Source: Caenibius tardaugens NBRC 16725 (lineage in GTDB: Bacteria; Pseudomonadota; Alphaproteobacteria; Sphingomonadales; Sphingomonadaceae). Taken from it: a stretch of 64,000 nt of DNA. The notes under the pieces are model-generated. The model was not told where the DNA came from. It did not search any database and worked only from the letters and a program-made list of their open reading frames with translations. Location: positions 3,022,001-3,086,000 of the forward strand of contig NZ_CP034179.1 of NCBI RefSeq assembly GCF_003860345.1, in the 5' to 3' direction. Of this stretch, positions 18,222 through 53,670 are shown one piece after another. The stretch's first letter is position 1, and each line of letters opens with the position of its first letter. The translations under genes were made by a program, and so were the position numbers.

Positions 18222-19370
18222 ATGAGCGATCGTTACGAACGCATTCCCTATCTTGTGGTGTTCGACGAACAGAGCGCATTCAAGGACACTTACGCCGGCG
18301 AAATCGGCAAGGTGGTTATCGAAGCGCATCTGCTGAAGCCCGAAACGCCTTCGGATGCGGTGGTGGTGTTTTCGCATCCCATCGGCGGCGGTGCGTGGCT
18401 GCCGATGATGGCCGCGCTGGCCAAGCAGGGTGTGCACACGATCTATTGCAACACCCGCTATCGCGGCAACGACACCGCGCTGATCATGGAACGCGCGGTT
18501 ATGGATCTGGGTGCCTGTATCCGCGATGCGCGCGAACGGCTGGGCTACAAGAAGGTCTATCTCGGTGGCTGGTCGGGCGGGGGCGGCCTGTCCTTGTTCT
18601 ATCAGGCAGAAGCGCAGGACCCGCGCGTTACGCATACACCGGCGGGCGATCCCTACGATCTGACGGCTGCGAAGTTCGAACCCGTCGATGGTGTCATGCT
18701 GATCGCCGCGCATTTGTCACGCAATCTGACATTGACCGAATGGCTGGACCCGTCGGTGACGGACGAGGCCAATCCCTTCGTGCGGGATGCCTCGCTCAAT
18801 CTCTATGCCCCCGACGGCCCGCAAGCGCCCTATTCGGCCGAATTCCTGACCCGCTATCGGGCGGCGCAGATCGCGCGCAACCGGCGCATTACGGCATGGG
18901 TGAAGGATGAACTGGCCACTTTGAAAGCGGCCGGGCTGGAGCATCACGAACGGTGCTTCACCGTGCAGGGCACCATGGCCGATCCGCGTTTCCTTGATGC
19001 CACGCTCGATCCCAGCGATCGTCCGCCGAACTGGTGCATGCTGGGTGTGCCCTCTGTCGTGAATGACGGGCCGGTGGGGCTCGCGCGGTTCAGCACGCTG
19101 CGTTCGTGGCTGTCGCAATGGTCCTATGACGATTCCAATGCCGATGGGCTGAAATGCGCCGCGCGCATTACATCCCCGATGCTGGTGGTGGAAAACAGCG
19201 CCGACGATGCCTGCACCCCTGATCATGCGGCGCGCCTGATGGCGGCGGCGGTGAACTGCCCGATTGATCATCATGTCATCAAGGGCGCGAACCATTACTA
19301 CTTCGGTCAGCCAGCACAGGCCAAGGAAGCGGCGACGCTGATCCGTCAGTGGGTTGAAGCGCAGGGATGA
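18222..19370 (+). CDS. Alpha/beta hydrolase
   Basis: The 382-residue protein has the alpha/beta-hydrolase core: VVVFSHPIGGGAW with the oxyanion strand, the nucleophile elbow GGWSGGGG (Ser118), and near the C-terminus MLVVENSADDACTPDHAARLM with the acid and KGANHYYFGQ with the catalytic His. It could cleave a thioester, ester or carbon-carbon bond in the pathway; the exact reaction is unknown. It starts after GGAGCGGGCCA, 11 bases past the restored stop of the VOC gene, and its last four bases overlap the phosphotransferase start (ATGA), so the genes are tightly coupled. Confidence 0.88.
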   Translation: MSDRYERIPYLVVFDEQSAFKDTYAGEIGKVVIEAHLLKPETPSDAVVVFSHPIGGGAWLPMMAALAKQGVHTIYCNTRYRGNDTALIMERAVMDLGACIRDARERLGYKKVYLGGWSGGGGLSLFYQAEAQDPRVTHTPAGDPYDLTAAKFEPVDGVMLIAAHLSRNLTLTEWLDPSVTDEANPFVRDASLNLYAPDGPQAPYSAEFLTRYRAAQIARNRRITAWVKDELATLKAAGLEHHERCFTVQGTMADPRFLDATLDPSDRPPNWCMLGVPSVVNDGPVGLARFSTLRSWLSQWSYDDSNADGLKCAARITSPMLVVENSADDACTPDHAARLMAAAVNCPIDHHVIKGANHYYFGQPAQAKEAATLIRQWVEAQG

Positions 19371-20395
19371 CACAGGGCGCGCCTGATATTCCCGCGTTCG
19401 CGCATGCCATCGGCGAAGCTGCGGCTCTCGCCGGCTGTACAGGCGCGCGCGCGGAGAACATCAAACGCCTGTCGGGCGGGGCCAGCAAGGAAAGCTGGGC
19501 TTTCGATCTGGTGGCGCCTGACGGGGCGGTGACGCCGATGGTGCTGCGGCGCCAGCCTGCAGAAATGCGGTTCTCCTTCACAGGCGTGGAAAGTCTCGCT
19601 GCCGAAGCCGCGCTCTTGCGTGCAGCGGCGGCAGGCGGGGTACCGGTCCCGCAGGTATTCTTCGAGCTTCCGGAAGGGTCGTCTGCGGGCGAAGGCTATG
19701 CGATGGCCCGTATCGCGGGTGAAACGGTTGGCAGCCGTATTCTCAAATCGCCCGAATTGGCAGAAGCGCGCAAAGGGCTGGCCTATCAGTGCGGCGAAGT
19801 GCTGGCGCGTATTCACGCGGTGCCGGTAGACGATCTGAACGGGCTACCATCGTCCATGCCGGATGCGGAACTGGCCGCATTGGAGGCGCGCCATCGCGCC
19901 ACGGGGCAAGATCGTCCGGTGTTCGATTTCGCGTTTCGCTGGCTGGCTGAGAACCTGCCGCAGCAAGCGCCGCGCACACTGGTTCACGGAGATTTCCGTA
20001 ACGGAAATCTGATGATCGGTGCCGATGGCATCCGTGCCGTGCTCGATTGGGAACTGGCGCACGTGGGATCGCCCGTGTCGGATCTCGGCTGGCTGTGCGT
20101 GACGAGCTGGCGTTTCCAGTGTCCGGAAAATCCGGTCGGTGGTTTCGGTTCGCGCGAGGACCTGCTGTCAGGCTATTATGCAGCAGGCGGCGCGCCGGTG
20201 GATCTTGCGCATCTGCACGCATGGGAAGTGTTCCAGACTTTGTTCTGGGGCGTGATGTGCGCGGAAGTCGGAACCACCTTTATGGGCGGGGTGCGCAGTG
20301 TCGAAGGTGGGATGATCGCGCGCCGCGCATCGGAAACCGAATTCGATCTTTTGCGGCTGCTTTTGCCGGATCATGAGGCCTGGAATGCAGGATAA
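19367..20395 (+). CDS. APH-family phosphotransferase, LvaA/ACAD11-like hydroxyacyl-CoA kinase candidate
   Basis: The 342-residue kinase has the aminoglycoside-phosphotransferase fold: KRLSGGASKESWAFDL (nucleotide loop), VLRRQP with the lysine-equivalent region, LVHGDFRNGNLMI with the catalytic Asp, and AVLDWELAHVGSP with the metal-binding Asp. Family knowledge: LvaA of Pseudomonas putida and the kinase halves of ACAD10/ACAD11 phosphorylate 4-hydroxyacyl-CoAs so that a dehydrogenase-like partner can eliminate phosphate. The next gene is DUF6285, as expected for an LvaA/LvaB pair, and an ACAD10/11-like protein is at 15281. Inference: it removes a hydroxyl group from an acyl-CoA intermediate before beta-oxidation. 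Confidence 0.87.
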   Translation: MTQGAPDIPAFAHAIGEAAALAGCTGARAENIKRLSGGASKESWAFDLVAPDGAVTPMVLRRQPAEMRFSFTGVESLAAEAALLRAAAAGGVPVPQVFFELPEGSSAGEGYAMARIAGETVGSRILKSPELAEARKGLAYQCGEVLARIHAVPVDDLNGLPSSMPDAELAALEARHRATGQDRPVFDFAFRWLAENLPQQAPRTLVHGDFRNGNLMIGADGIRAVLDWELAHVGSPVSDLGWLCVTSWRFQCPENPVGGFGSREDLLSGYYAAGGAPVDLAHLHAWEVFQTLFWGVMCAEVGTTFMGGVRSVEGGMIARRASETEFDLLRLLLPDHEAWNAG

Positions 20396-20753
20396 GCCCG
20401 ACGCCCCGACGCTGCTGGCCGAAGTCCAGGCAGAGTTAAAGGCCGGGATCGCTCCCGGTTTCCAGCAGGCGGTTGCAGCCAATGCGATCGCGCTGGCGTT
20501 GCGCGAACAGGACAAGGCGGCGGCTGGTCACGCCGCCGAGCATGCCCGGCTGGTGGAGCTGCTGGCGCATGAAGGAAGCCTTGAAGCGCTGAATCGCCTG
20601 CTGGCCACCCGCATTCGCGAAGGCGTGCTGGACAGGAACGATAGCACGCTGACCCGGCACCTGATTCTGACTACGATCGAAAAGATGATCGTGGACCAGC
20701 CCCGTTACCCGGCGTTCCGGGCCTGGCGCGCAAGCTATGGAGAACAGGTATGA
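20385..20753 (+). CDS. DUF6285 protein, LvaB-like partner of the phosphotransferase
   Basis: This 122-residue, mostly helical protein (LLAEVQAELKAGIAPGFQQAVAANAIALALRE, then HEGSLEALNRLLATRIREG, both quoted in parts) matches the small partner found next to LvaA-type phosphotransferases. In levulinate catabolism LvaB is needed for the kinase step; the exact role here is by analogy. The ATG at 20385 overlaps the kinase gene by 11 bases and its own end overlaps the next gene by four bases. A distant copy of the same pair is at 40768-42106, with weak but recognisable similarity (A-x-x-L-x-x-R-E pattern and RHLI-like tail). Confidence 0.75.
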   Translation: MQDKPDAPTLLAEVQAELKAGIAPGFQQAVAANAIALALREQDKAAAGHAAEHARLVELLAHEGSLEALNRLLATRIREGVLDRNDSTLTRHLILTTIEKMIVDQPRYPAFRAWRASYGEQV

Positions 20754-21655
20754 CGTCGGTTGAAATCGTTGAAGTGGGTCCGCGCGATGGCCTGCAAAAC
20801 GAAAAACTGATCGTGGCGACGGCGGACAAGGTCGAACTGGCGCAACGCGCCATTGCCGCAGGGGTGAAGCGACTGGAAGTGACGAGCTTCGTTAATCCCA
20901 AACGCGTGCCGCAAATGGCCGATGCCGAAGATGTGGTGAAGCTGCTGGGCCGGCCCGAAGGGGTGACCCGGATTGGGCTGGTTCTCAACGAACAGGGCGC
21001 GCAGCGCGCGATAGATTGCGGGATGGACCAGTTGGGCGCCGTTGCCCTGGCAACCGACGCTTTCGGCATTCGCAACCAGAAGCAGACCAGCGCGGAATCG
21101 GTCGAGGTTGCACGGCGGATCATCGCCATGGGCAAGGCGGCCGGGCGCAGCGCACAGGTGACTATCTCGGTCGCTTTCGGCTGCCCGTTTGCGGGTGAAG
21201 TCGATCCTGCCCGCGTGGTCGCCATGGCGCGGCAACTGGCCGATGCCGGACCTTGCGAGATCGCCCTTGCCGATACGATCGGCGTGGCGGTACCGGGGCA
21301 GGTGTCGCGCTTGATCGCGGCGGTGCGCGCGGAAATCGGGGCGATCCCGGTGCGGGCGCATTTTCATGACACGCGCAACACCGCCATCGCCAATGTCTGG
21401 GCTGCCGTGGAAGCAGGCGCTGCCACGATCGATGCGGCCCTTGGCGGGCTGGGCGGCTGCCCGTTTGCACCCGGCGCAGCGGGCAACGTCGCGACCGAAG
21501 ATGTGATTTATCTGCTCGACCGTTCGGGCGTGACAACAGGCATCGATTTTGCCTCGCTGGTTACCTCATCGAAATGGCTGGGCGGCGTGATGGGGAAGGA
21601 ATTGCCATCAATGCTCGCGCGGGCTGGCGGCTTCCCCGAAGGGGAGGATGCGTAA
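20750..21655 (+). CDS. HMG-CoA lyase family enzyme
   Basis: The 301-residue TIM-barrel protein has VEIVEVGPRDGLQNEK at the N-terminus (catalytic Arg and metal Asp in GPRDGLQ), EVTSFVNPKRVPQMAD, SVAFGCPFAGEVDP, RAHFHDTRNTAIAN (metal His-x-His) and the HMG-CoA lyase signature GLGGCPFAPGAAGNVATED with the catalytic cysteine. The classical reaction splits 3-hydroxy-3-methylglutaryl-CoA into acetoacetate and acetyl-CoA; a related retro-aldol cleavage of a pathway acyl-CoA is equally possible. Its operon position with CoA transferase and thiolase supports branched-chain breakdown. Confidence 0.92.
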   Translation: MTSVEIVEVGPRDGLQNEKLIVATADKVELAQRAIAAGVKRLEVTSFVNPKRVPQMADAEDVVKLLGRPEGVTRIGLVLNEQGAQRAIDCGMDQLGAVALATDAFGIRNQKQTSAESVEVARRIIAMGKAAGRSAQVTISVAFGCPFAGEVDPARVVAMARQLADAGPCEIALADTIGVAVPGQVSRLIAAVRAEIGAIPVRAHFHDTRNTAIANVWAAVEAGAATIDAALGGLGGCPFAPGAAGNVATEDVIYLLDRSGVTTGIDFASLVTSSKWLGGVMGKELPSMLARAGGFPEGEDA

Positions 21656-22851
21656 TGCTGGCGGACAATACCGGAGCCTTGAAAGGGCTCAAAGTCGTGG
21701 AACTGGGGCAACTGATTGCTGGCCCGTTCTGCGGCCAGTTGCTGGGCGATATGGGCGCCGATGTGGTCAAGATCGAGCCGCCGGGCGCCGGCGATCCGAT
21801 GCGGCAATGGGGCAATGGCGAACACAAGGTGTGGTGGGAAGTCATCGGCCGCAACAAGCGGTCGGTTACCGCCAATCTGCGCGAACGTGACGGGCAGGAA
21901 CTGGCGCGCAAGCTGCTGGCCGATGCCGATATCATGATCGAGAATTTCAAGCCTGGCACAATGGAGAAGTGGGGGCTCGATCCCGCGAGGCTGCATGCGC
22001 TCAATCCGGGTCTGATCATCGTGCGGATATCGGGCTATGGGCAGACCGGACCTTATGCCGCGCGCGCGGGCTTTGGCGGCGTGGCGGAATCGATGGGGGG
22101 GTGGCGCGCAATCGTGGGCGATCCCGACCAGCCGCCGAGCCGTATGGGCGTATCCATCGGCGACACGTTGACCGCGACATATGCTTGTATGGGCGCACTT
22201 GCCGCACTGCGCGCCCGCGAAACCACCGGGCAAGGGCAGGTGATTGACGCCGCGCTGTATGAATCGGTGTTGCAGGTCATGGAAAGCCTGGTTGCGGAAT
22301 ACGATGTGATGGGCATTGTGCGCCAGCGTTCGGGGTCGATCCTGCCGGGCATTGCGCCGTCCAATGTCTATCGCTGCGCAGATGGCGAATACATGATTGG
22401 CGCCAATGGCGATGCCATTTTCGCACGGTTGACCGAAGCGATGGGGCAGCCGGAACTGGCCAGCGATCCGCGTTATGCCACACATATCGCGCGCGGTGAA
22501 AATCAGACTGAACTGGACCAGTTGATCGAACGTTGGACGCTGACGTTGACGATCGACCAACTCGAAGCGCTGATGGTCGAATACTCCATTCCGGCCGGAC
22601 GCATCTTCCGCGCACCGGATATGCTTGCCGATCCGCAGTATCAGGCGCGTGAGGCGATTGTTTCGCTACCCAATCCCGATCACGGCACGGTTCGCATGCA
22701 GGCATGCTTCCCGAAGCTGTCCGAGACCCCTTCCACCATCCGTCGTATCGCGCCGCGGTTTCCCGGTGAACACAATGCCGAAGTCTATGGCGAACGCCTG
22801 GGCCTCGACGCTGCGGCACTCGCTGACCTTGCCGCGCGCGGTTTGATCTGA
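21655..22851 (+). CDS. CaiB/BaiF family III CoA transferase
   Basis: This 398-residue protein moves CoA between acids. The N-terminus LKVVELGQLIAGPFCGQLLGDMGADVVKIE (in parts) is the family CoA-binding block; the catalytic aspartate is D170 in VSIGDTLTA, matching D169 of formyl-CoA transferase. Unlike the protein at 13488, it lacks the GHDINY racemase motif, so it is a true transferase. The start ATG at 21655 shares its first base with the TAA stop of the lyase, a sign of tight coupling. With the lyase it may activate an acid by using CoA from acetyl-CoA or succinyl-CoA. Confidence 0.92.
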   Translation: MLADNTGALKGLKVVELGQLIAGPFCGQLLGDMGADVVKIEPPGAGDPMRQWGNGEHKVWWEVIGRNKRSVTANLRERDGQELARKLLADADIMIENFKPGTMEKWGLDPARLHALNPGLIIVRISGYGQTGPYAARAGFGGVAESMGGWRAIVGDPDQPPSRMGVSIGDTLTATYACMGALAALRARETTGQGQVIDAALYESVLQVMESLVAEYDVMGIVRQRSGSILPGIAPSNVYRCADGEYMIGANGDAIFARLTEAMGQPELASDPRYATHIARGENQTELDQLIERWTLTLTIDQLEALMVEYSIPAGRIFRAPDMLADPQYQAREAIVSLPNPDHGTVRMQACFPKLSETPSTIRRIAPRFPGEHNAEVYGERLGLDAAALADLAARGLI

Positions 22852-22872
22852 CTTTTCTGGAGCACGAAGCCA

Positions 22873-24078
22873 ATGCAGGACGTTTACATTTACGATCATG
22901 TGCGCACACCGCGCGGCAAGGGCCGCCCGGATGGTGCGCTTCACGAAATTCCCCCGGTGCAGCTGGTCGCGCAGACGCTCGAAGCGTTGCAAACCCGCAA
23001 CGGGCTCGACACGGCGCTGCTCGACGATGTCGTGATCGGCTGTGCGCAGCCGGTTAGCGAACAGGGCGGCGTGCTGGCGCGCGCTGCGGTGATCAGCGCG
23101 GGTTACGCGCAGACTGTGGCCGCACAACAGGTCCACCGTTTCTGTGCCTCTGGCCTGGAAGGGGTCAACAATGTCGCCGCACAGATTGCGACCGGAATGG
23201 CCTGCGCCGGCGTAGGCGGCGGCGTGGAATCCATGAGCCGCGTCAAGATGGGGTACGACACCGGGGCCTGGGCGGCCGATCCCTGGGTCGCCTATCATAA
23301 CTATTACGCGCCGCAGGGGATTGGTGCAGACATCATCGCCACGCTGGAAGGTTACAGCCGCAATGATGTCGACAGCTATGCTGCCGAGAGCCAGCGCCGC
23401 GCTGGTATTGCATGGGACGAAGGTCGCTTCGCCCGGTCGATCGTGCCGGTCAGGGATGCAATGGGCGAAGTGATTCTGGACAACGACGAACATCGCCGTC
23501 CGACTACGACGGTGGAATCGTTGGCCAGCCTCAAACCGGCGTTCCCCGCTGCGGCAGGGATGGGTTACGCACGCGTGGCCAAAGAGCGGTACCCGCAGAT
23601 CGAAGAACTCAATCATGTCCATACCGGCGGCAATTCGTCAGGGATTGTCGATGGTGCCGGGGTCGTATTGCTGGGTAATGCCGATTTCGGAAAAGCTGCA
23701 GGTTTGACGCCGCGCGCGCGTATCCGGGGCTGGGCCACGATCGGTTCGGAACCGACGATCATGCTCACCGCACCGGTTGATGTCGCCAAGAAGGCGTTGA
23801 AGCACACCGGAATGACCAAGGACGATATCGACCTGTGGGAATTGAACGAGGCATTCGCCAGCGTTGTGCTGCGCTTCATGAATCATATGGACGTCGATCC
23901 GGCCCGGATGAACGTCAACGGCGGCGCGATCGCGCTGGGCCATCCACTGGGCGCGAGCGGGGCCATGATCCTCGGCACCGTGCTGGATGAACTGGAACGC
24001 CAAAACCTGAACACCGCAATGGCTTTGCTGTGCGCCGGCAACGGCATGGGCATCGCCACCATTATCGAGCGAGTCTGA
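22873..24078 (+). CDS. Thiolase (acyl-CoA C-acyltransferase)
   Basis: The 401-residue thiolase carries out the last, carbon-shortening step of beta-oxidation. The acyl-accepting Cys91 is in HRFCASGLEGVN, the catalytic His in NVNGGAIALGHPLGASGA, and the second Cys in LLCAGNGMG. An ELNEAFAS motif confirms the degradative thiolase group. It starts 21 bases after the CoA transferase behind TGGAGCACGAAGCCA and is followed at 4 bases by the FadJ-like gene, the usual thiolase/multifunctional-enzyme pair. Confidence 0.94.
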   Translation: MQDVYIYDHVRTPRGKGRPDGALHEIPPVQLVAQTLEALQTRNGLDTALLDDVVIGCAQPVSEQGGVLARAAVISAGYAQTVAAQQVHRFCASGLEGVNNVAAQIATGMACAGVGGGVESMSRVKMGYDTGAWAADPWVAYHNYYAPQGIGADIIATLEGYSRNDVDSYAAESQRRAGIAWDEGRFARSIVPVRDAMGEVILDNDEHRRPTTTVESLASLKPAFPAAAGMGYARVAKERYPQIEELNHVHTGGNSSGIVDGAGVVLLGNADFGKAAGLTPRARIRGWATIGSEPTIMLTAPVDVAKKALKHTGMTKDDIDLWELNEAFASVVLRFMNHMDVDPARMNVNGGAIALGHPLGASGAMILGTVLDELERQNLNTAMALLCAGNGMGIATIIERV

Positions 24079-24082
24079 TCCC

Positions 24083-26242
24083 ATGAGCCAAACCTATCGC
24101 CATATCCGTGTTGAAAAGGGCGCTGACGGCGTCGCTGTCATCACGCTCGACAATGCCGACGAAACGATGAACGTCGTTGGCAATGCCTTCATCGCCGACA
24201 TGAACGCGGCCATTGCCGATCTGCAGGGTGACGATGCCGTCACCGGGGTGATCGTGACATCGGGCAAACCGGCCTTCATGGCCGGGGCCGATCTCAAGCT
24301 GATGGTGGCCGCTTATGGCCGGATGACCCGGCCCGAAGCCTATGAATTCAGCCACAACGCCACGCGCATGCATCGTGCGCTGGAAACCATGGGCAAGCCG
24401 GTCGCCTGTGCGATGAATGGTCTTGCTCTCGGCGGCGGGTTCGAACTGGCGCTGGCTTGCCATTATCGCGTTCTGGCCGATGATCCCAAGGCGGTCGTCG
24501 GCCTGCCCGAAGTAACGCTGGGTCTTCTGCCCGCTTCGGGCGGGACGCAGCGCATGGTGCGCCTGCTGGGCGCGGACAAGGCGCTGGGTCTGCTTCTGAC
24601 AGGCAAGTCGCTCCGCCCCGCCGATGCCTTGAAGGCCGGTATCGTCGATGCGCTGGCGCCTGCCGATCAGGTTGTTGCCAAGGCACGCGAATGGTTGGCC
24701 AGCAATCCCGAACCCAGCCAGACATGGGATCGCAAAGGTTTCTTCATGCCCGAAATGCGCGGCATGATGGTGCCCGAAGTGGCGATGGGCGCTTCCGTTG
24801 CTGCGGCAGGGGTCGTGCGCGATGCGGGCTACAACCTGCCAGCACCGATTGCCGTGCTGCAATCGGTGTTCGAAGGCATGCAACTGCCGATGGACAAGGC
24901 GCTGTCGGTGGAAAGCAAGTATTTCGCCCGGCTGCTGACCGATCCCGTGGCGCGCAATATCGTTCGCACCACGTTCATTTCCAAACAGGCGGCTGAAAAG
25001 GGCGCGCGTCGCCCGGCTGGCGTGCCCAAGACGACCTACACCAAGGTCGGTGTCGTGGGCGCTGGCATGATGGGTGCCGGGATCGCACTGGTGGCTGCCG
25101 TCGCCGGGATCGAAGTCATCCTGATCGATCGCGATCAGGCCTCTGCCAGCAAGGGCAAGGGCTATAGCGAGAAAGTCTGGGCCAAGCAGGTGGCCAAGGG
25201 CGCGTTGAGCCAGGACAAGATGGATGCCCAGCTTGCCCGGATCACGCCCACGGATGATTTCGCGCTGCTGACAGGTTGCCAGCTGGTGGTCGAGGCCGTG
25301 TTCGAGGATGTCGAAATCAAGGCCGAAACCACACGCAAGGCCGAGGCGGTGATCCCGGCTGATGCGATTTATGCGTCCAACACCTCGACCCTGCCGATTT
25401 CCGGTCTGGCCGAGGCATCGGCACGTCCGGACCAGTTCATCGGCATGCACTTCTTCTCGCCGGTCGACCGGATGGGACTGGTCGAACTGATCATGGGCAA
25501 GCAGACGTCGCCGGAAACGCTGGCCAAGGCGCTCGATTTCATTGCCCAGATCCGCAAGACGCCGATTGTCGTCAACGACAGCCGTGGATTCTACACCAGC
25601 CGCGTGTTCCAGACGCTGGTCTATGAAGGCGCCGCTATGCTGGAAGAAGGTGTTGAGCCTGCCCGGATCGAGAATGCGGCCAAGGCGGCCGGGTTCCCGG
25701 TGGGCCCGCTGGCGCTGCTCGACGAAGTGACCATGGACTTGCCGATCAAGATCAACGAGCAGGCGATTGCCCAGAACGATCCCAACTATGTCGCGCGCGG
25801 CGGCGTCGATGCGCTGAAGGCGATGATCGCTCTTGGTCGCAGTAGCCGCAAGGCAGGCGCGGGTTTCTACGAGTATCCGGCCGAAGGGCCCAAGCATTTG
25901 TGGGCAGGCCTCAGGGAACAGTTCCCGGCTGCTCCCGAACAGCCCGAACAGGATGAACTCAAGACCCGCTTCCTTTATACGCAGGCCATCGAAACGGCGC
26001 GCTGTCTCGAACAGGGCGTGCTCGAAACTGCGCAGGATGCCGATCTTGGCGCCGTTTACGGGTGGGGTTTCCCGGCCTGGACCGGCGGGACGCTCAGCTA
26101 CATCGATACGATCGGTCTTGAGACCTTCGTGCGCGAGGCGGATCGCCTGACGCAGCAATATGGCCCGCGTTTTGCCCCGTCGGCCTGGTTGCGCGACCGC
26201 GCCGCCAAGGGTGAAGCGTTCTATCCCGTGGAAGCGGCCTGA
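24083..26242 (+). CDS. Multifunctional enoyl-CoA hydratase/3-hydroxyacyl-CoA dehydrogenase (FadJ/FadB-like)
   Basis: The 719-residue enzyme joins two beta-oxidation steps. Residues about 1-200 form the crotonase domain, with the two catalytic glutamates in GGGFELALACHY and VGLPEVTLGLLPASGG. The Rossmann domain begins near residue 315 with VGVVGAGMMGAGIA and holds the catalytic His in IGMHFFSPVDRMGLVE; the C-terminal dehydrogenase domain follows from about residue 500 (SRGFYTSRVFQTL) to 710. Length and order match FadJ. It is directly downstream of the thiolase and 2 bases upstream of the acyl-CoA dehydrogenase, so the three make one functional beta-oxidation set. Confidence 0.95.
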   Translation: MSQTYRHIRVEKGADGVAVITLDNADETMNVVGNAFIADMNAAIADLQGDDAVTGVIVTSGKPAFMAGADLKLMVAAYGRMTRPEAYEFSHNATRMHRALETMGKPVACAMNGLALGGGFELALACHYRVLADDPKAVVGLPEVTLGLLPASGGTQRMVRLLGADKALGLLLTGKSLRPADALKAGIVDALAPADQVVAKAREWLASNPEPSQTWDRKGFFMPEMRGMMVPEVAMGASVAAAGVVRDAGYNLPAPIAVLQSVFEGMQLPMDKALSVESKYFARLLTDPVARNIVRTTFISKQAAEKGARRPAGVPKTTYTKVGVVGAGMMGAGIALVAAVAGIEVILIDRDQASASKGKGYSEKVWAKQVAKGALSQDKMDAQLARITPTDDFALLTGCQLVVEAVFEDVEIKAETTRKAEAVIPADAIYASNTSTLPISGLAEASARPDQFIGMHFFSPVDRMGLVELIMGKQTSPETLAKALDFIAQIRKTPIVVNDSRGFYTSRVFQTLVYEGAAMLEEGVEPARIENAAKAAGFPVGPLALLDEVTMDLPIKINEQAIAQNDPNYVARGGVDALKAMIALGRSSRKAGAGFYEYPAEGPKHLWAGLREQFPAAPEQPEQDELKTRFLYTQAIETARCLEQGVLETAQDADLGAVYGWGFPAWTGGTLSYIDTIGLETFVREADRLTQQYGPRFAPSAWLRDRAAKGEAFYPVEAA

Positions 26243-26244
26243 CC

Positions 26245-27399: not shown

Positions 27400-27402
27400 A
27401 TC

Positions 27403-34572: not shown

Positions 34573-34599
34573 TCTACTTTCTTGAGACACGAGGTTCCG

Positions 34600-36150: not shown

Positions 36151-36181
36151 GCCTGACGGACGACATCGGGGGAATTACGAC

Positions 36182-38455: not shown

Positions 38456-38486
38456 CGCGATGGCTGGTGAGAAAGTGAGTATCGAC

Positions 38487-40767: not shown

Positions 40768-41100
40768 TCAGGGGATGGCACGATGCATGGGGTCAAGCAG
40801 TTCGGGGCGTGTGACTTCGACCGCAACCACGGTTTCGTCCAGCAGGCGGGTGATAAGATCGTCCCAGCATGCGTCATGCGCGCCATCGCGGATCGCCGCG
40901 CACAATTGCGCGCCATCATCCAGCATAGGGCCGCGATAGGCGATTTCCCGTTCGCATATGGCCAGCAGATAGCTGGCGACCTGCGCCTGAAAGCGGTTGC
41001 CCGGTTGGCCTGCGTGGCTGTCGAGATAGTCGCGCACTGTGCGGAGCAGATTGGCCATGGTTGGCACTTGCGGGCGAAGGCCCCGGGACGGCTCAGTCAT
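40768..41100 (-). CDS. DUF6285 protein, second LvaB-like partner
   Basis: The 110-residue helical protein (LLRTVRDYLDSHAG, ASYLLAICEREIAYRG, LITRLLDETVVAVEVTRPELL) resembles the DUF6285 protein at 20385 in size, helix pattern and gene context. Its ATG at 41100 overlaps the stop of the phosphotransferase gene by 8 bases, so both are made together, as with LvaA/LvaB in levulinate catabolism. A shorter start at 41058 (MANLLRTV) is possible. It is the last gene of a minus-strand operon with the phosphotransferase, an AttH-like protein and an acyl-CoA ligase. Confidence 0.72.
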   Translation of the reverse strand: MTEPSRGLRPQVPTMANLLRTVRDYLDSHAGQPGNRFQAQVASYLLAICEREIAYRGPMLDDGAQLCAAIRDGAHDACWDDLITRLLDETVVAVEVTRPELLDPMHRAIP

Positions 41101-42106
41101 AATGTCCTGCCAATGTCATAAGAAGATCGTATTCGATCAAGGCGGTGTTGCGCCCGCAGGCAGCGAAGACCAGTCCGCGCCGTTCACCGTTGATATGGCC
41201 ATGGCCCTGCATGATGTTGAGAATGGCCCAGCGCACCAGTCCGAACACCTCCCAATAGCGTAGCTCATCGGGGGTAATGGCCGTGCCCCCCGCACGGGTA
41301 TAGGCTGCCAGCAAATCTTCGCGCGAACCAAGGCCCGCCGCTGCTTTTCCAACCTGCCCGAACCGCCACGACCGCATGCACAGCCATCCCAGATCTTCGG
41401 CGGGTGATCCCAGATGCGCGCATTCCCAATCGAGCAGCGATACGGCGCCTTTATCCGGTGCCACCATCAGATTGCCGAGGCGAAAATCGCCATGCAAGGG
41501 GCGTGGGCCCCCCGCAGGTGGCCGGTTGCGTTCCAGCCAGCGCAGTCCTGCTTCAATAGCGGGGCGGGGCTGGCCATAGCCATCGTAACGATCACGTTGC
41601 GCCATGATCGGGTCGCGGCTGTCCGGGGTTTCGGCCAAAAATGCGAAAGTTTCGGCAGGAATGCTGTGCATTTTGGCAAAAACGCCGCCGATCTGTGCCA
41701 CCAGCAGCGGACGCACGGTGTCGAACCTCTCGCTGGTCAGGATCGTCTTGGGCATGGTTTCGCCGCTGACGAAATCGGTAACGAAACCGAAGCCCATACC
41801 ATCGGCGTGATCGAGTTCGAACAGGGGTTCCGGTACCGGCACGCCATGGTCGAAAGCGGCCCGCATGGCGCGGAACTGATCGTGTGTCGGAAGGAAGGGG
41901 CTGTCGGCTGCGCTGTAGGTTTCCTGTCGGGAAACCATCCGGCGGCGGCCATTGCCCTGCACGAGATCGAAAATCACCGTGCGGTTCGATCCGCCCAGCG
42001 TGGGAACGACGATCCGGTCGATTGTGGCGCTGGTCCCGTAACGGCGCCTGACGGCGGTCAGAAGATCGTCAAACCCTTCCGTGCCCTCATGCGTCAGTTC
42101 GGCCAC
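41093..42106 (-). CDS. APH-family phosphotransferase, second LvaA-like hydroxyacyl-CoA kinase candidate
   Basis: The 337-residue kinase shows the nucleotide-loop region TLGGSNRTVIFDL, MVSRQE in the lysine strand, RPLHGDFRLGNLMV with catalytic Asp and SLLDWECAHLGSPAEDLGWL with the metal-binding Asp. It shares LHGDFRxGN and the LGSPxxDLGWLCxxSWRF block with the protein at 19367 and is also paired with DUF6285, so both should have the same chemistry on different hydroxyacyl-CoAs. The start is a GTG at 42106 overlapping the upstream gene by 13 bases. An acyl-CoA ligase lies upstream in the same operon and could supply its substrate. Confidence 0.86.
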   Translation of the reverse strand: MAELTHEGTEGFDDLLTAVRRRYGTSATIDRIVVPTLGGSNRTVIFDLVQGNGRRRMVSRQETYSAADSPFLPTHDQFRAMRAAFDHGVPVPEPLFELDHADGMGFGFVTDFVSGETMPKTILTSERFDTVRPLLVAQIGGVFAKMHSIPAETFAFLAETPDSRDPIMAQRDRYDGYGQPRPAIEAGLRWLERNRPPAGGPRPLHGDFRLGNLMVAPDKGAVSLLDWECAHLGSPAEDLGWLCMRSWRFGQVGKAAAGLGSREDLLAAYTRAGGTAITPDELRYWEVFGLVRWAILNIMQGHGHINGERRGLVFAACGRNTALIEYDLLMTLAGHYD

Positions 42107-43185: not shown

Positions 43186-44865
43186 TCAAACCGATGCGCC
43201 CTTTGCATCGTCTGCGTAGCCCGATTTTCTCAGGGCGGCTTTCAACGGGCGCAGATCGTGGCATCCCGCTACCGTGCGGGGATCTTCGCCCGCTGCGAAA
43301 ATCAGCCGATGCTGGACCTTGCTGGTGCCGGTGGTCGGCAAGGTTTCGCGAAACAGCAGCCAGCCCGGCACCTTGAAATAGGACAGACGTTCGCGGCAGT
43401 GGCGCACCAGCGCCTCGGCGGCGGTGGCATCCTGCCGCGCCCCGGCAGTGGGCACGATGCAGGCCAGCACTTCTTCCTCGCGGAGATCGTCAGGCACGGC
43501 CAGCACGGCGCAGGCCACGACATCGGGATGGGAAGCCAGGGCGGCCTCGACCTCGCTGGCGGAGATGTTCTCGCCCGAGCGACGAATAATGTTCTTGGTG
43601 CGGTCGACAAAGGTCAGCAGCCCGTCCTCGTCCTGTCGCACGACATCGCCGGTGTGGAACCATCCGCCGCGCCATGCCTCCTCGGTCGCATCGGGCCGGT
43701 TGAGATAACCGCCGAAAAAACCCTTGCGCGGATCGTCTGCGGTATGGCGGACAGTCAGCTCGCCAATCGTTCCCCGGGGTACTTCCCTGTCGTCGGAATC
43801 GACCACGCGCGCCTCAAGGCCGGGCAGCGGCCGTCCGATGGCGCGCGTGTGGATCGATCGCGGTTCCAGATGATCGGTGAAAGTCCGCCCCGTTTCGGTC
43901 ATTCCCCAGACTTCCACCATGGGAAATCCGAACCGTTTCTCGAACGCGATATGTGTGGCCGGTGCAACGCCCGCCCCGAAGGCAAAGCGAAGATGATGTC
44001 GCTTTTCGGCGGCATTCGGTTCGGCCGCGAGCAGGATGGGCGGGATAACCCCCATGTAATGCATGATCGTCGCACGGGTGGCGGCGATATCATCCCACCA
44101 ACTGGCGGGGTGGAAACGTTCGGCGCTGATCACGCAGCCGCCGGTCAGGATCATCGCCATCAGGCTGAGGACACCGGCATTCATGTGCAGCATGGGAAAG
44201 GGGTTGAATATCCGTTCTCTGTCGTTGCGAACGGTCATGCGCCCGCCGCGCGAAATGTACCACTGGCCCCCGTGCAGGAAATAATCGTTGGTGACCCGGC
44301 ACCCTTTGGGCAGGCCTGTAGTGCCCGACGTGTAGAGCAGCAGGGCATCGGTGGCGCGGCCCGGTGTGGCCGCCAAGCCCGGATTGCGGGGTGGCGCGAA
44401 GCGATCGGGCAGTGCGGATATATCGCAATGCTGCGGCGTTCCGGCAATCTTGCCCAGCGCGTCTTCAGTCCTTTCGCGCTGGGACGGCACGGAGAGGATG
44501 AGGTCGACAGCACTGTCATCGAGCACATGGGCAATTTCATCGGCCGTCTGATCGAAACCTAGCGGCACGATCATGGCGCCGATCGCATTGGCGGCGAGGA
44601 AAAGCTGGAAATGTTCCGGGCGATTGCCCAGCATTACCGCGATGCGATGGCCGTGGCCGAAGCCCGATCGTTCGAGCAAGGCGCGAATCTCTGCGGCCAT
44701 GCCGGCCATGCGCGCATAGCTGAAGCTTTCCCCATCAGGGCAATAGTCGCGTTCTGCGCGGGCGGGGATGCAAAGGAAATCGGCGTCGGGGCAACGGGCC
44801 AGTGTCTCCGCGAAGGCCTGGTATGCACTGTGCAAGTGTGGGGGTGGATCAACCGGCCTGTGCAT
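43186..44865 (-). CDS. Acyl-CoA synthetase (AMP-forming)
   Basis: The 559-residue class I adenylate-forming ligase has the P-loop LLYTSGTTGLPKGCRV near residue 175, GAGVAPATHIAFEKRFGFPMVEVWGMTETG (in parts), WFHTGDVVRQDEDGLLTFVDR and the C-terminal PTTGTSKVQ with the acyl-transfer lysine. It would load an acid onto CoA as first step for the downstream kinase/DUF6285 pair. An 87-base gap separates it from the AttH-like gene, which could hold an internal promoter. The ATG at 44865 follows GGGGTGGATCAACC, a weak site. Confidence 0.93.
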   Translation of the reverse strand: MHRPVDPPPHLHSAYQAFAETLARCPDADFLCIPARAERDYCPDGESFSYARMAGMAAEIRALLERSGFGHGHRIAVMLGNRPEHFQLFLAANAIGAMIVPLGFDQTADEIAHVLDDSAVDLILSVPSQRERTEDALGKIAGTPQHCDISALPDRFAPPRNPGLAATPGRATDALLLYTSGTTGLPKGCRVTNDYFLHGGQWYISRGGRMTVRNDRERIFNPFPMLHMNAGVLSLMAMILTGGCVISAERFHPASWWDDIAATRATIMHYMGVIPPILLAAEPNAAEKRHHLRFAFGAGVAPATHIAFEKRFGFPMVEVWGMTETGRTFTDHLEPRSIHTRAIGRPLPGLEARVVDSDDREVPRGTIGELTVRHTADDPRKGFFGGYLNRPDATEEAWRGGWFHTGDVVRQDEDGLLTFVDRTKNIIRRSGENISASEVEAALASHPDVVACAVLAVPDDLREEEVLACIVPTAGARQDATAAEALVRHCRERLSYFKVPGWLLFRETLPTTGTSKVQHRLIFAAGEDPRTVAGCHDLRPLKAALRKSGYADDAKGASV

Positions 44866-48204: not shown

Positions 48205-48274
48205 GCACCTGAACTATCGGGCTGCAAAGGGCCGGGGGCAATGTCTTCCCGGCCCCGATAACGGGAGAAGAGCG

Positions 48275-49630: not shown

Positions 49631-49646
49631 TCGCGGACTGTTCTGC

Positions 49647-50276: not shown

Positions 50277-50363
50277 GCCTGTCGCTCTTTCATGGTCACG
50301 GCTGTAGCCGCCCTGTTTGCGGATTGTCACGTTCCAAGCCGTGCTTCACCCCGGCTTTATTAT

Positions 50364-50403
50364 GGGATTACAATTTGACAACCCGTATCTGGTTCGGGAT
50401 ATT
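50364..50403 (+). promoter_or_regulatory. Promoter of the SDR/Rieske operon with an overlapping palindrome
   Basis: TTGACA (50375-50380) and GATATT (50398-50403) are 17 bp apart and form a sigma70-type promoter. The -35 lies inside an imperfect palindrome GGG-N-T-N2-CAA-N-TTG-N2-A-N-CCC (50364-50384), a fitting operator for the divergent TetR gene. Confidence 0.5.
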
Positions 50404-50475
50404 GTGCGCAAGGATCGCGTCGCGGGGGTGCCTAGGGGCAGCGCATGACAGATGCGACGTGGTGGAGAGAATGGG

Positions 50476-51384
50476 ATGGAAGAATCCTATGCATCGCAGG
50501 GGCCTTCTCTGGCCGGGAAAGTGGCGCTTGTCACCGGTGCCAGCCGGGGCATCGGGCGCGCAATTGCGCAGCGTTTCGCCAGTGCAGGGGCGTTGGTGGT
50601 CGTCACGGCCCGTTCGCTCGACCGGCCGGTGGAGGGCGCGGACGTAGCCGATGGCACCTTGCGCGAAACCGTCGAACTTGTCCGGCAGGCAGGCGGGTCC
50701 GCGATTGCGATTGCGGCTGATCTGGAAAATCCGGATGATCGCGCGCGTCTGCTGGAAGCCGCGGTTTCGCAGGCTGGCGGGATCGATATTCTGGTCAACA
50801 ATGCGGGGCTGACGCGTTTTGCCGCCTCGGAAACCATGCCCGCAGCCCTGTTGGAGCGGACGATAGACCATTATTTCCGGATACCCTTCCTGCTGTCTCA
50901 GGCGGTGATCCCGCAGATGAAGGCGCGGGGGCGGGGCTGGATCATCAATCTGGGGTCCGTGGCGGCGCTGCGCCCGATGACAGGGCACAATCTGGTGCTG
51001 GGCGATACGGTCTACGCGGCCAGCAAGGCGGCGCTTGCGCGATTGACGCAAGGGCTGGCGGCCGAGCTTCAGGCGGATAACATCGCCGTCAATCTGGTCG
51101 CCCCGTCCACGGCCGTCCGCACGCCCGGCGGCAAGGACATCATTCCCGATGATTTTCCGACGGAAGATGTCGAATATCTGGCGGCAACCGCGCTGGCGAT
51201 GGCCCATCTGCCAGCGTCGGAGCGGACCGGGCAACTCGCTTTCAGTATGCATTACGCCAACGAGACCGACCTCGTGGTGCATTCGCTGGATGGCCGGGAT
51301 GTCCTGCCACGGCGCCTGCCGCCGGATTGGGCACATCCTGACATCGCTTTTTCTTCACGCGTTCAATTTCAGGGGCACGCATGA
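50476..51384 (+). CDS. Short-chain dehydrogenase/reductase
   Basis: The 302-residue SDR has TGASRGIGRAIAQRF, the ARSLDRP insert after the second strand, LVNNAGLTRF, INLGSVAAL with the catalytic Ser and YAASKAALARL with Tyr and Lys. The C-terminus is about 40 residues longer than in classical SDRs (VHSLDGRDVLPRRLPPDWAHPD), a feature of dehydrogenases in multi-enzyme degradation operons. The start follows GTGGAGAGA. The end overlaps the AttH-like gene by four bases (ATGA). It is the first gene of the operon that ends with the Rieske dioxygenase subunits. Confidence 0.9.
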   Translation: MEESYASQGPSLAGKVALVTGASRGIGRAIAQRFASAGALVVVTARSLDRPVEGADVADGTLRETVELVRQAGGSAIAIAADLENPDDRARLLEAAVSQAGGIDILVNNAGLTRFAASETMPAALLERTIDHYFRIPFLLSQAVIPQMKARGRGWIINLGSVAALRPMTGHNLVLGDTVYAASKAALARLTQGLAAELQADNIAVNLVAPSTAVRTPGGKDIIPDDFPTEDVEYLAATALAMAHLPASERTGQLAFSMHYANETDLVVHSLDGRDVLPRRLPPDWAHPDIAFSSRVQFQGHA

Positions 51385-52547
51385 GCTACTTCAAGTCCAC
51401 CGACCCTTCGATCATCATCTGCGAGGCGGATGAATTCCAGATCCATCAGACGGCGGCCCCGGTGCGCCATGTCAGCACCAGCGATCGCAATTTCTACGAA
51501 CGCTATCACATGACCGGACACGGCAATCGGGATCTGGTCTATTTCAACGCCGGTTTCGGGCAGTATCCCAATCTGGCGGTGCAGGATGCGTTCCTGAACG
51601 TGGTCGAAGGGGATAACCACCACGTCCTGCGCGCATCGCATATTCTGGGCGATCGGCTGCAGATCGGGGCGGGGCCGCTGCGGATCGAGATTATCGAACC
51701 GCTGAGGAAATTCAGGCTGGTCGCGGAAGAAAACGCATCGGGGATCACGGCCGATCTGGTGTACGAGGCGACAGTGCCCGTCTTCGTGGAACCGCGCCAC
51801 ATCTCCGTCCGCCATGGCCGCACCCTGATGGATTATCAACGCTACGATCAGGCTGGTACATGGTCGGGGCATATCCAGTTGCCCGACCGCCGGATCGAAG
51901 TGCATCCCGAAACGTGGAGCGCCTATCGCAACCATAGCTGGGGCGTGCGCCCGGTGGGCGAACCGGAACCCGCCGGAATCAATGGCGAGCCCAGCCAGCG
52001 CAGCCAGTTTCCGCAAGTTGGCATGTGGAATTATGCCACCATGCAATTCGGCGATTTCGCGATCCTCTATCTCCTGAACGAGCGGGATTCCGGCGAACGC
52101 GCGATCGAGAGCGCGGTGCGCATCTGGAAAGACCCTGCGCGCCCGCTGGATCAACTGGGCACCGTGCAACACGATCACCGGTTCATCAGCGGGACGCGCA
52201 ACATATCGGGGGCGACGCTGCATTTCGCCGATGCCCCCGGCGGGGCGTTGACGGTGGAAGTGGAGCCGCTGATGCGCTGCTATATCACCATCGGCACAGG
52301 CTATGGCACCGGCCATGGCATTCAGGATCCATGGCGGCACGGCAAATATATGGGGCCGGACTGGTTCGATTATCTCAAATGCAGCGTGGCGGAGTTGGAG
52401 GCGAATGGCGCCGATATGCTCTATGTCGAAAATCTCGCAAATTTCCGTTTGAACGATGGGTCCGTGGGCACGGGCTATCACGAAACTGCATTTATTGGCC
52501 CCTATCGCAAGCACGGGTTTCTCGGCGATGACGACACCGCAGCCTGA
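51381..52547 (+). CDS. AttH/lipocalin-like protein (DUF7064/7065-type, tentative)
   Basis: The 388-residue beta-rich protein resembles the protein at 42094: it has DRNFYERYHMTGHGNRDLVYFNAG early, GTWSGHIQLPDRRIEVHPETWSAYRNHSWGVRP (in parts) in the middle and repeated aromatic strands to the end. The Y-R-N-H-S-W-G segment corresponds to W-R-D-H-S-W-G of the other protein. It is coupled by overlap to the SDR before it and to the phosphotransferase after it. A lipocalin-fold hydratase, isomerase or ligand-carrier role is possible; none is shown by sequence. Confidence 0.72.
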   Translation: MSYFKSTDPSIIICEADEFQIHQTAAPVRHVSTSDRNFYERYHMTGHGNRDLVYFNAGFGQYPNLAVQDAFLNVVEGDNHHVLRASHILGDRLQIGAGPLRIEIIEPLRKFRLVAEENASGITADLVYEATVPVFVEPRHISVRHGRTLMDYQRYDQAGTWSGHIQLPDRRIEVHPETWSAYRNHSWGVRPVGEPEPAGINGEPSQRSQFPQVGMWNYATMQFGDFAILYLLNERDSGERAIESAVRIWKDPARPLDQLGTVQHDHRFISGTRNISGATLHFADAPGGALTVEVEPLMRCYITIGTGYGTGHGIQDPWRHGKYMGPDWFDYLKCSVAELEANGADMLYVENLANFRLNDGSVGTGYHETAFIGPYRKHGFLGDDDTAA

Positions 52548-53670
52548 GGATAGCGCGCGGGCTGAGCAGGCGATGCTGGATGCCCTGGCGCGGTGGCTGA
52601 TGCGGCAATGGCCGCAGGCCGCCGATGTGCGATGTGTGTTCGACGGAGCGCCGAAAAACGGTATGTCCAATGATACGCGCTTCGTCACTGTGCGCTGGCA
52701 GGAGGGCGGCATTGCGCAAGTGGCGCGCTATGTCCTGCGTCAGGGCACATCGGGCGACCCGATCCACCCTCTGCAGACTGATGCCGTCGCCAGCAGCGTC
52801 GAACTGCAGTACCGGGTGATGCACGCGCTGCTGCAGGAGGGAAGCCTGCCGCTGGCGCGCCTGCTGCCGTTTGAACCGGACAGGCAGTGGCTGGGGGCGC
52901 CGTTCTTCCTGATGGCGTTCGTGGCGGGGTGGGCGCCACCGGATTTCCCCGGCTTCACGGAACAAGGGCGGATTGTTGCAGCCAGCGCGGACCAGCGTCG
53001 GCGGTTCAACGAACGGGGCCTTTCCGCGCTGGCGCGCCTTCACCGGATCGATTGGCGGGCAGCGGACCTGCAGTGGCTGGATCGGGCGGTGGCGGATGGG
53101 CCGCGCATGCCCGCGCAACTGGCCTTGTGGGATAACTATTGCGCGCCGATTTTCGCACGCACGGCCTTTCCGGTTATGGCATCTGCCCTGACATGGCTGA
53201 AGGCCCATGCACCGGACGAACCCGATGCGGCGTTGGTCTGGGGCGATGCCCGGCCGCAGAACATGCTGTGGGGCGATGACTTCGCGCTGACGGCGGTGAT
53301 GGACTGGGAAGGCGCGGCGATCCTGCCGCCGGAAACCGACATCGCCTATTGGCTGGTCAACGATCACATGGTGCACGAGCGGTTGGGTGTCGTGCGGCTG
53401 GATGATTACCCCACACGCGAAGAACAACTGGCGTTCTACTGCCGCGAATTGGGGCGTCCGGTGCGTGACATGGGCTATTACCGGGTGTTCGCCCTGATGA
53501 CGATCGCCGCCACGATGTACAACGTTTACCGCATTCTTGCGGAAATGGGCGTGGCGGCTGGCGCTGATGCCGATCCCGAAAACAACTATTTCGCCCGCGC
53601 GCTCGCGCGGGAACTGGCCGCCGCGCAGGGCGCGCAAGGCCTTCCCCTGTCTGGTGGAGAGCAGGCATGA
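52528..53670 (+). CDS. APH-family phosphotransferase, third copy, divergent
   Basis: The 380-residue protein has the APH fold but differs from the other two. The catalytic loop reads LVWGDARPQNMLW, with Trp instead of the usual His before Gly-Asp, and the metal-binding motif is VMDWEGAAILPPETDIAYW. WGDARPxN is common in ACAD11-like prokaryotic kinases, so activity is still expected. No DUF6285 gene accompanies it; its neighbours are an AttH-like protein (20-base overlap upstream) and the Rieske oxygenase (ATGA overlap downstream). It may act on hydroxylated ring-derived acids. Confidence 0.82.
   Translation: MTTPQPEDSARAEQAMLDALARWLMRQWPQAADVRCVFDGAPKNGMSNDTRFVTVRWQEGGIAQVARYVLRQGTSGDPIHPLQTDAVASSVELQYRVMHALLQEGSLPLARLLPFEPDRQWLGAPFFLMAFVAGWAPPDFPGFTEQGRIVAASADQRRRFNERGLSALARLHRIDWRAADLQWLDRAVADGPRMPAQLALWDNYCAPIFARTAFPVMASALTWLKAHAPDEPDAALVWGDARPQNMLWGDDFALTAVMDWEGAAILPPETDIAYWLVNDHMVHERLGVVRLDDYPTREEQLAFYCRELGRPVRDMGYYRVFALMTIAATMYNVYRILAEMGVAAGADADPENNYFARALARELAAAQGAQGLPLSGGEQA

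What the first reader, a model, noticed from the sequence alone, without database searches (positions are those of the whole stretch)
19367..53670. Three LvaA/ACAD11-like kinases, two paired with LvaB-like DUF6285 proteins
Seen: APH-fold phosphotransferases at 19367, 41093 and 52528; the first two each overlap a DUF6285 gene. Established: in Pseudomonas putida LvaA with LvaB phosphorylates 4-hydroxyvaleryl-CoA and LvaC, an acyl-CoA-dehydrogenase-fold protein, removes phosphate; vertebrate ACAD10/11 fuse the two activities. An ACAD10/11-like gene is at 15281, and each cluster has CoA ligases. Inferred: phosphorylation-assisted dehydration of several hydroxyacyl-CoAs is a repeated step in degrading a complex substrate here, which would extend this chemistry far beyond levulinate.
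Basis: partly seen in the sequence, partly recalled or inferred. Interest (0 to 1): 0.78.

Follow-up and report, generated by a model that had tools for sequence, protein, structure and literature searches.

The report
Three kinase-lyase modules for ATP-driven dehydration
One stretch of a bacterial chromosome, probably a sphingomonad's, carries three different gene sets that look built to remove water from stubborn alcohols by first attaching a phosphate and then expelling it, one of them with an enzyme branch whose part in this is still a prediction.

Summary
The kinases are real, but they are three different modules. K1 (19367), with a clear DUF6285 partner, is LvaA/LvaB-like: DUF6285 sits beside or fused to a kinase in 84 of 84 examined loci (one place counted twice), and one locus is a complete lva-type operon. 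The ACAD at 15281 is not ACAD10/11-type: it lacks HCMR, the catalytic Asp and the phosphate triad. It belongs to a separate clade, sister to LvaC-type in one tree, found in 34 of 147 sampled genomes of the order, all 34 with kinase-DUF6285 (81, 46, 86). Its role as phosphate eliminase is inferred. K2 (41093) has a marginal DUF6285 partner and overlaps a DUF7064 gene remotely homologous to the 25-phosphosteroid-lyase family (131): a possible hybrid. K3 (52528) has no DUF6285; its overlapping partner matches solved 25-phosphosteroid lyase at E 7.7e-91 (119), so K3 reads best as a hydroxysteroid-kinase/phospholyase-like pair. No activity, substrate or structure was tested. New variant of a known kind.

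The parts
15281..16588 (-). ACAD of the NRIRQ / HHRRYRITEG clade: candidate phosphoacyl-CoA eliminase partner of K1
   Evidence: PF00441 146.1 bits; clade 100/100, sister to LvaC-type 98/86; no HCMR, Glu409 kept; co-occurrence with kinase-DUF6285
16820..17602 (+). SDR dehydrogenase beside the 15281 ACAD
   Evidence: PF00106 171.6 bits; 45-48% homologues near the clade ACAD in L143, L157, L159
19367..20395 (+). K1: APH-fold kinase, LvaA-like, of the DUF6285-associated group
   Evidence: PF01636 125.6 bits; groups with DUF6285-adjacent kinases in the tree, modest support
20373..20753 (+). DUF6285 (LvaB-family) partner of K1, overlapping it by 23 bp
   Evidence: PF19802 74.7 bits; 93.3 bits with a model that excludes it
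20750..21655 (+). HMG-CoA-lyase-like enzyme, overlapping the DUF6285 gene by 4 bp
   Evidence: PF00682 149.8 bits; 54-55% homologues near the clade ACAD in L143, L157, L159
21574..28185 (+). beta-oxidation run: CaiB-type CoA-transferase, thiolase, FadB-like fusion, ordinary ACAD, enoyl-CoA hydratase
   Evidence: Pfam
40768..41100 (-). marginal DUF6285 (LvaB-like) partner of K2, overlapping it by 8 bp
   Evidence: 28.1 bits = cut-off; 31.0 bits against a best of 9.1 in 2000 shuffles; not reported by the genome-wide search
41093..42106 (-). K2: APH-fold kinase
   Evidence: PF01636 100.9 bits
42094..43098 (-). DUF7065/DUF7064 protein, candidate phospholyase, overlapping K2 by 13 bp
   Evidence: PF23212 67.2 bits; hhalign to the Rv3169/25-PSL family 98.7%; AttH 2ich E 0.0015
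43186..44865 (-). acyl-CoA ligase upstream of the K2 group
   Evidence: PF00501 199.4 bits
49647..50330 (-). TetR regulator near the K3 pair
   Evidence: PF00440 48 bits; Rv3167c-Rv3168-Rv3169 has the same kinds of gene (PMC5340868 passages)
51381..52547 (+). Rv3169-family protein, 25-phosphosteroid-lyase homologue
   Evidence: NF053593 357.7 bits, cut-off 150; PDB 9g4c and 9fzn, 25-phosphosteroid lyase, E 7.7e-91 and 3.7e-90
52528..53670 (+). K3: APH-fold kinase (the longest ORF starts at 52456; a start at 52528 overlaps the lyase-type gene by 20 bp)
   Evidence: PF01636 61 bits; PDB 9fsg E 6e-32, 3ats E 1.3e-27
53667..54962 (+). Rieske oxygenase alpha subunit, overlapping K3 by 4 bp
   Evidence: PF00355, PF00848; HcaE model 313.8 bits, below its cut-off of 830

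Best explanation
The island encodes three ATP-dependent dehydration modules, each an APH-fold kinase that phosphorylates an alcohol and a second protein that expels the phosphate to leave a C=C bond. (1) K1 plus its LvaB-family subunit (DUF6285) phosphorylates a hydroxyacyl-CoA; the 15281 ACAD, from a clade distinct from LvaC/ACAD10/11, eliminates the phosphate on FAD, and the enoyl-CoA goes to the beta-oxidation genes at 21574-28185. (2) K2 with an LvaB-like subunit is served by a phosphosteroid-lyase-type protein (42094) instead of an ACAD. (3) K3 and the 51381 protein work like 25-hydroxysteroid kinase and 25-phosphosteroid lyase on a (probably tertiary) alcohol of a steroid- or terpenoid-like substrate. 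Shown here: gene families, gene overlaps, co-occurrence, the clade and homology. Inferred: substrates, order of reactions, and the eliminase role of 15281, 42094 and 51381 in this organism.
For: K1: a kinase is adjacent to or fused with DUF6285 in 30 of 30 examined loci of the order, 34 of 34 across the phylum outside the family and 20 of 20 further loci; L090 and L230 are one place. The clade ACAD is in 34 of 147 genomes of the order and DUF6285 in 31 by Pfam, all 31 within the 34; the other 3 have kinase-DUF6285 fusions that Pfam missed. Among 80 named loci of the clade, DUF6285 lies within 6 kb in 61 and a kinase in 60, and the other 19 genomes all hold DUF6285 elsewhere. Across the phylum, 21 of 34 DUF6285 loci hold an LvaC-type ACAD, a clade ACAD or both, as if the two were alternatives. 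Clade rows have 7 basic residues in the 12 before the aligned catalytic position in 45 of 45 (one sequence twice), against 0-6 in 42 other ACADs. K3: its partner matches 25-PSL at E 7.7e-91; in the order 28 of 28 over-cut-off Rv3169-family loci have a kinase within the 1.5-kb flank. K2: its neighbour's family is homologous to that family, with a shared R-[DN]-[HR]-SWG-x-R; the same order DUF7064, kinase, DUF6285 stands in L290, from another class.
Against: No activity or structure. The ACAD11 phosphate contacts R626/H634/R637 are F278/Q286/S289 in the window protein, and the base is Glu as in ordinary ACADs. All 34 clade genomes also have an LvaC-type ACAD by profile, and seven phylum loci, all of one genus, carry both types; 13 of 34 carry neither. 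Variovorax L120 has kinase-DUF6285 beside an ordinary ACAD; L118 has the clade ACAD with no kinase within 8 kb. Outside the order, 5 of 13 over-cut-off Rv3169-family loci have no detected kinase within about 6 kb. K2's DUF6285 is marginal. In the window the 15281 gene is 2.8 kb from K1, on the other strand.
Confidence: 0.55

Rival explanations
1. The 15281-clade ACAD is an ordinary dehydrogenase in the same pathway; the phosphate is eliminated by LvaC-type ACADs encoded elsewhere (three in this genome).
For: Glu base and missing ACAD11 phosphate triad; seven loci with both ACAD types; LvaC-type present by profile in 117 of 147 genomes, including all 34 with the clade.
Against: DUF6285 tracks the clade (34 of 34), not LvaC-type (34 of 117). 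No LvaC-type gene lies in the stretch held around the clade ACAD in any of 80 named loci (up to 6 kb each side, some contigs shorter). The clade is the sister of LvaC-type in the tree (98/86). Two of the own genome's LvaC-type genes (1.47 and 2.48 Mb) lie within 1 kb of kinases of their own.
Confidence: 0.3
2. One reading: all three are LvaA/ACAD11-like hydroxyacyl-CoA kinases served by an ACAD10/11-like protein.
For: K1 and K2 have DUF6285 partners; all three kinases share remote similarity with ACAD11 (9-11).
Against: 15281 fails the ACAD10/11 residue tests; K3 lacks DUF6285 and has a 25-PSL homologue as partner.
Confidence: 0.08
3. The kinases are drug-modifying or other small-molecule phosphotransferases that merely sit in a catabolic island.
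For: They match the APH family (3), and K1 and K2 match models of macrolide and other antibiotic kinases weakly, far below the cut-offs.
Against: APH(3') model 24.3 bits (K1) and 12.4 bits (K3) against a cut-off of 205; conserved coupling to DUF6285, ACAD and lyase-type genes.
Confidence: 0.04
4. The 42094 (DUF7064) protein is a hydratase, isomerase or binding protein rather than a phospholyase.
For: It resembles AttH and, weakly, CrtC; Sulfitobacter alexandrii L119 has it next to an LvaC-type ACAD, which could do the elimination.
Against: Homology to the 25-PSL family (131) and overlap with a kinase gene here and in L290 (101).
Confidence: 0.4

Closest known systems
lvaABC of Pseudomonas putida (levulinate; PMC6692424, passages)
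   Same: K1 and marginally K2: kinase plus a DUF6285-type partner of about LvaB size; an ACAD-superfamily protein linked by co-occurrence
   Different: the ACAD belongs to another clade; K2 has a lyase-type neighbour and no ACAD beside it; K3 is not of this kind. The KT2440 LvaB sequence itself was not available here
ACAD10/ACAD11 (PMC11342911 and PMC12440821, passages)
   Same: kinase plus ACAD-fold chemistry proposed on a hydroxyacyl-CoA
   Different: no fusion; HCMR, R626 and the catalytic Asp are absent from the 15281 protein
25-hydroxysteroid kinase / 25-phosphosteroid lyase of Sterolibacterium denitrificans (PMC8449060: abstract, outline and passages; PMC11061730: passages; PDB 9g4c, 9fzn by name only)
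   Same: K3's partner is a near-full-length homologue of solved 25-PSL; the kinase is APH-type
   Different: the pair is adjacent and overlapping here, while the 2021 paper reports no lyase candidate near 25-HSK; substrate unknown. That 9fsg is 25-HSK is my guess: its title and organism were not seen, nor the organism of 9g4c
Rv3167c-Rv3168-Rv3169 (PMC5340868, passages)
   Same: TetR regulator, APH kinase and Rv3169-family protein together
   Different: here an SDR ORF and the lyase-type gene precede the kinase; the passages seen give no enzymatic function

Membership tests
LvaA/LvaB kinase pair | APH-fold kinase with catalytic motifs | tested here: met
   K1, K2, K3
LvaA/LvaB kinase pair (K1) | small LvaB-family (DUF6285) partner gene | tested here: met
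   74.7 bits
LvaA/LvaB kinase pair (K2) | small LvaB-family (DUF6285) partner gene | tested here: inconclusive
   exactly at the cut-off; 31.0 bits with own model; not reported in the genome-wide search
LvaA/LvaB kinase pair (K3) | small LvaB-family (DUF6285) partner gene | tested here: not met
   the genome-wide PF19802 search reports only the K1 partner
LvaA/LvaB kinase pair | DUF6285 is the LvaB family | tested here: met
   by synteny only: lva-type operon in L286; KT2440 LvaB not compared directly
LvaC/ACAD10/ACAD11 | catalytic Asp, HCMR and upstream Arg | tested here: not met
   15281: Glu409, F278, Q286, S289
LvaC/ACAD10/ACAD11 | phosphate elimination without an electron acceptor | not testable with these tools
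   no assay
ACAD10/ACAD11 | kinase fused to ACAD domain | tested here: not met
   separate genes
25-PSL / Rv3169 family | full-length match over the family cut-off (51381 protein) | tested here: met
   NF053593 357.7 bits against 150; PDB 25-PSL E 7.7e-91 (119)
25-PSL / Rv3169 family | full-length match over the family cut-off (42094 protein) | tested here: not met
   22.5 bits against 150; remote homologue only
25-hydroxysteroid kinase | K3 is an orthologue of 25-HSK | tested here: inconclusive
   best solved match 9fsg, whose name is uninformative
25-hydroxysteroid kinase | phosphorylates 25-OH steroids | not testable with these tools
   no assay
aminoglycoside phosphotransferase (resistance) | NCBIfam APH(3') cut-off | tested here: not met
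   24.3 (K1) and 12.4 (K3) bits against 205; K2 has no match to that model at E 0.001 (4)

The most novel reading that the evidence does not exclude
LvaAB-type kinases are a general activation module with interchangeable eliminases: LvaC-type ACADs; a second ACAD clade, found in Proteobacteria, an actinobacterium and haloarchaea, that binds the phosphate with a different set of basic residues; and (K2) a phosphosteroid-lyase-type protein working on the product of an LvaAB-type kinase. One catabolic island then uses three distinct ATP-driven dehydrations on one complex substrate.
Probability: 0.35. Interest if true: 0.78.

Novelty: new variant of a known kind. Interest (0 to 1): 0.6.

Why it matters
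If right, phosphorylation followed by phosphate elimination is a common bacterial and archaeal way to dehydrate alcohols that do not lose water readily, with at least two apparently unrelated eliminase types and an ACAD branch that the annotated records seen here call only acyl-CoA dehydrogenase family protein. It gives LvaB/DUF6285, a family that no paper of the searched library names as DUF6285, a clear context, and it offers a coupled kinase/lyase-type gene pair for the 25-hydroxysteroid type of reaction.

Tried and rejected
Rejected: 15281 as ACAD10/11-like; antibiotic resistance; K3 as an LvaAB-type pair. Corrected: my motif filter in 97 called 7 LvaC-type ACADs 'other' (and missed them in the same way in 111); re-read in 133 and recounted in 134. 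Three genomes that Pfam scores as lacking DUF6285 have it fused to the kinase by my own model.

Led nowhere: tblastn of the DUF6285 protein against plasmids (no match); papers on 9FSG (0 hits), DUF6285 (0 hits), AttH with phosphotransferase (nothing relevant in the 15 of 72 listed), LvaB (32 papers; of the 10 listed only PMC6692424 is about lva). The test of whether clade ACADs occur in a genome without any LvaC-type ACAD failed, because all 34 genomes have both. The partner proteins of about 157-159 aa in haloarchaea (L116, L117) and in L119 are not recognisable as DUF6285 (93). Weak DUF7064/Rv3169-type matches in L322, L323, L324, L326, L327 and L328 had no kinase in the stretch fetched, nor had L083 and L084 in their short flanks, nor L300, L301 and L316 (105). 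A solved structure close to the ACAD clade was not found at E 1e-60 (117), nor one for DUF6285 (best E 0.1).

Of 13 plasmid records with the clade ACAD (51) I fetched 5 (53-57). Absence of DUF6285 in the other 113 genomes of the order rests on Pfam alone. The ACAD tree is one search on 65 rows; rows were dropped before it as duplicates, fragments or over-long ORFs, and likewise before the count in 109. Kinase, DUF6285 and ACAD calls in scripts use models built here. Genomes within an order are not independent, so the Fisher value in 85 (9.7e-29, on the Pfam counts 31 / 0 / 3 / 113) is only indicative.
Full report
What is there. The window is C1:3022001-3086000 of a 4.36-Mb single-contig genome. 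A relative of the same family (G065) has a DUF6285 match at the same coordinates as the genome that holds the Sphingomonas ursincola KR-99 locus L167, so the family is probably Sphingomonadaceae (inference). Three APH-fold kinases are present: K1 19367, K2 41093, K3 52528. The genome has 12 APH matches.

K1. Its overlapping partner is a clear DUF6285 protein. In the 30 DUF6285 loci of the order that I examined (L001 and L085-L113), 30 have a kinase next to DUF6285 or in the same reading frame; in 25 the two are one ORF, and in 23 a clade ACAD lies within the 1.5-kb flank. Across 398 genomes of the phylum, 39 have DUF6285; I fetched 34 loci, those of the 32 genomes outside the family, and 34 of 34 have the kinase, 4 of them fused. 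Twenty further loci, have it in 20 of 20 (L230 is the same place as L090). One phylum locus, L286, reads PrpR-type sigma-54 regulator / kinase / 118-aa DUF6285 / LvaC-type ACAD / SDR / ligase. That matches the lva genes and the 12-kDa LvaB that pulls down with LvaA, as told in PMC6692424 (passages). DUF6285 is therefore very likely the LvaB family; KT2440 LvaB itself was not compared.

The 15281 ACAD. Its PDB matches are led by SCAD-like and other ordinary ACADs, and ACAD11 is not among the best 60 of 88. PMC12440821 (passages) gives ACAD11 R626, H634 and R637 as phosphate contacts and D753 as the base; here they are F278, Q286, S289 and E409. Proteins with LvaC-type residues lie at three other places in the genome. 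Yet 15281 belongs to a distinct clade (29 rows, 100/100) that is sister to LvaC-type proteins in my tree (98/86). The clade has an invariant RIRQ-type helix and HHRRYRITEG up to the base: 7 basic residues of 12 in 45 of 45 rows (one sequence counted twice), 0-6 in 42 other ACADs.

The clade tracks kinase-DUF6285. In 147 genomes of the order the clade is in 34 and DUF6285 in 31 by Pfam, all within the 34. The remaining three carry kinase-DUF6285 fusions that Pfam missed. LvaC-type ACADs are in 117 of the 147 by profile. Of 80 named loci with the clade ACAD, 60 have a kinase and 61 a DUF6285 within 6 kb, 40 of them fused (the 61st lies at a contig end); the 19 remaining genomes all have DUF6285 elsewhere. 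No LvaC-type gene is in any of these 80 stretches. Sulfitobacter pontiacus has ligase-kinase-DUF6285-ACAD-hydratases-thiolase in a row, Nocardia farcinica DUF6285-kinase-ACAD, and two haloarchaea the ACAD beside a kinase that groups elsewhere in the tree, with a different small protein.

In the phylum set the ACAD found with kinase-DUF6285 is LvaC-type in 8 loci, clade in 6, both in 7 (all genus g65) and neither in 13. The simplest reading is that the two ACAD types fill the same slot. Against it: the missing phosphate triad, the Glu base, the loci with both types, an ordinary ACAD in Variovorax L120 and no kinase near the clade ACAD in L118.

K3. The overlapping upstream gene is an Rv3169-family protein (357.7 bits) that matches solved 25-phosphosteroid lyase at E 7.7e-91. 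K3's best solved match is 9fsg, an APH-like protein. PMC8449060 (abstract, outline, passages) describes ATP-dependent dehydration of 25-hydroxysteroids by a kinase and a then-unknown lyase, with no candidate near the kinase gene; PMC11061730 (passages) still calls the lyase putative. The window pair is thus best read as a coupled kinase/lyase set of that kind, with unknown substrate. A TetR gene lies nearby, as in Rv3167c-Rv3168-Rv3169 (passages). In the order, 28 of 28 over-cut-off Rv3169-family loci have a kinase within the 1.5-kb flank. Across the phylum 20 genomes are over the cut-off: 13 have a kinase within the flank, two more have one starting 1.3-1.4 kb away that the flank had cut, and 5 have none in the stretch fetched. 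The kinases belong to more than one lineage.

K2. It overlaps a marginal DUF6285 on one side and a DUF7065/DUF7064 protein on the other. That protein's family aligns with the Rv3169/25-PSL family (98.7%, E 2.9e-16) through a shared R-[DN]-[HR]-SWG-x-R motif, and weakly with AttH. L290, from another class of the phylum, has the same order: DUF7064, then kinase fused to DUF6285. L325 holds four kinases interleaved with three DUF7064-like genes. In the own genome all three Rv3169/DUF7064-type matches lie in genes that overlap a kinase gene. Other weak DUF7064-type matches have no kinase nearby. K2 therefore looks like a hybrid: LvaAB-type activation with a phosphosteroid-lyase-type second step. 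That second step is inference.

Conclusion. What would settle it is enzymology on the three sets.

Noticed in passing
L325 (G097:C50:64000-83000), 156-12352: Four APH kinases interleaved with three DUF7064-like genes in 12 kb of a relative's genome.
   Followed up: partly
L089-L113 and 40 of the 80 loci L132-L211: Natural single-ORF fusions of kinase and DUF6285, common in the sphingomonads sampled.
   Followed up: yes
L116 and L117 (haloarchaeal plasmids), L119: Kinases beside ACADs with a partner of about 157-159 aa that is not recognisable as DUF6285; possibly another LvaB-like subunit.
   Followed up: partly
17627-19370: A 427-aa ORF with a glyoxalase domain at its start runs for 700 bp over an alpha/beta-hydrolase ORF in another frame; one of the two is probably over-long or shifted.
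   Followed up: no
L143, L157, L159 (two of them Sphingosinicella): Homologues of the HMG-CoA-lyase-like gene (54-55%) and the SDR (45-48%) lie near the clade ACAD while DUF6285 lies elsewhere in the genome.
   Followed up: partly
902-3394, 11022-13349, 31993-34572: Three TonB receptors, with P450s at 3297, 28685 and 48275: the look of an island for a large hydrophobic substrate.
   Followed up: no
34582-39533: PhoD-like (below cut-off), sulfatase and a weakly GH43-like gene in a row: perhaps removal of a sulfate or sugar from the substrate.
   Followed up: no
L017 (own genome, 884-899 kb): A third kinase/DUF7065 pair overlapping by 4 bp, with TetR, AraC-type and TonB receptor genes around it.
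   Followed up: partly
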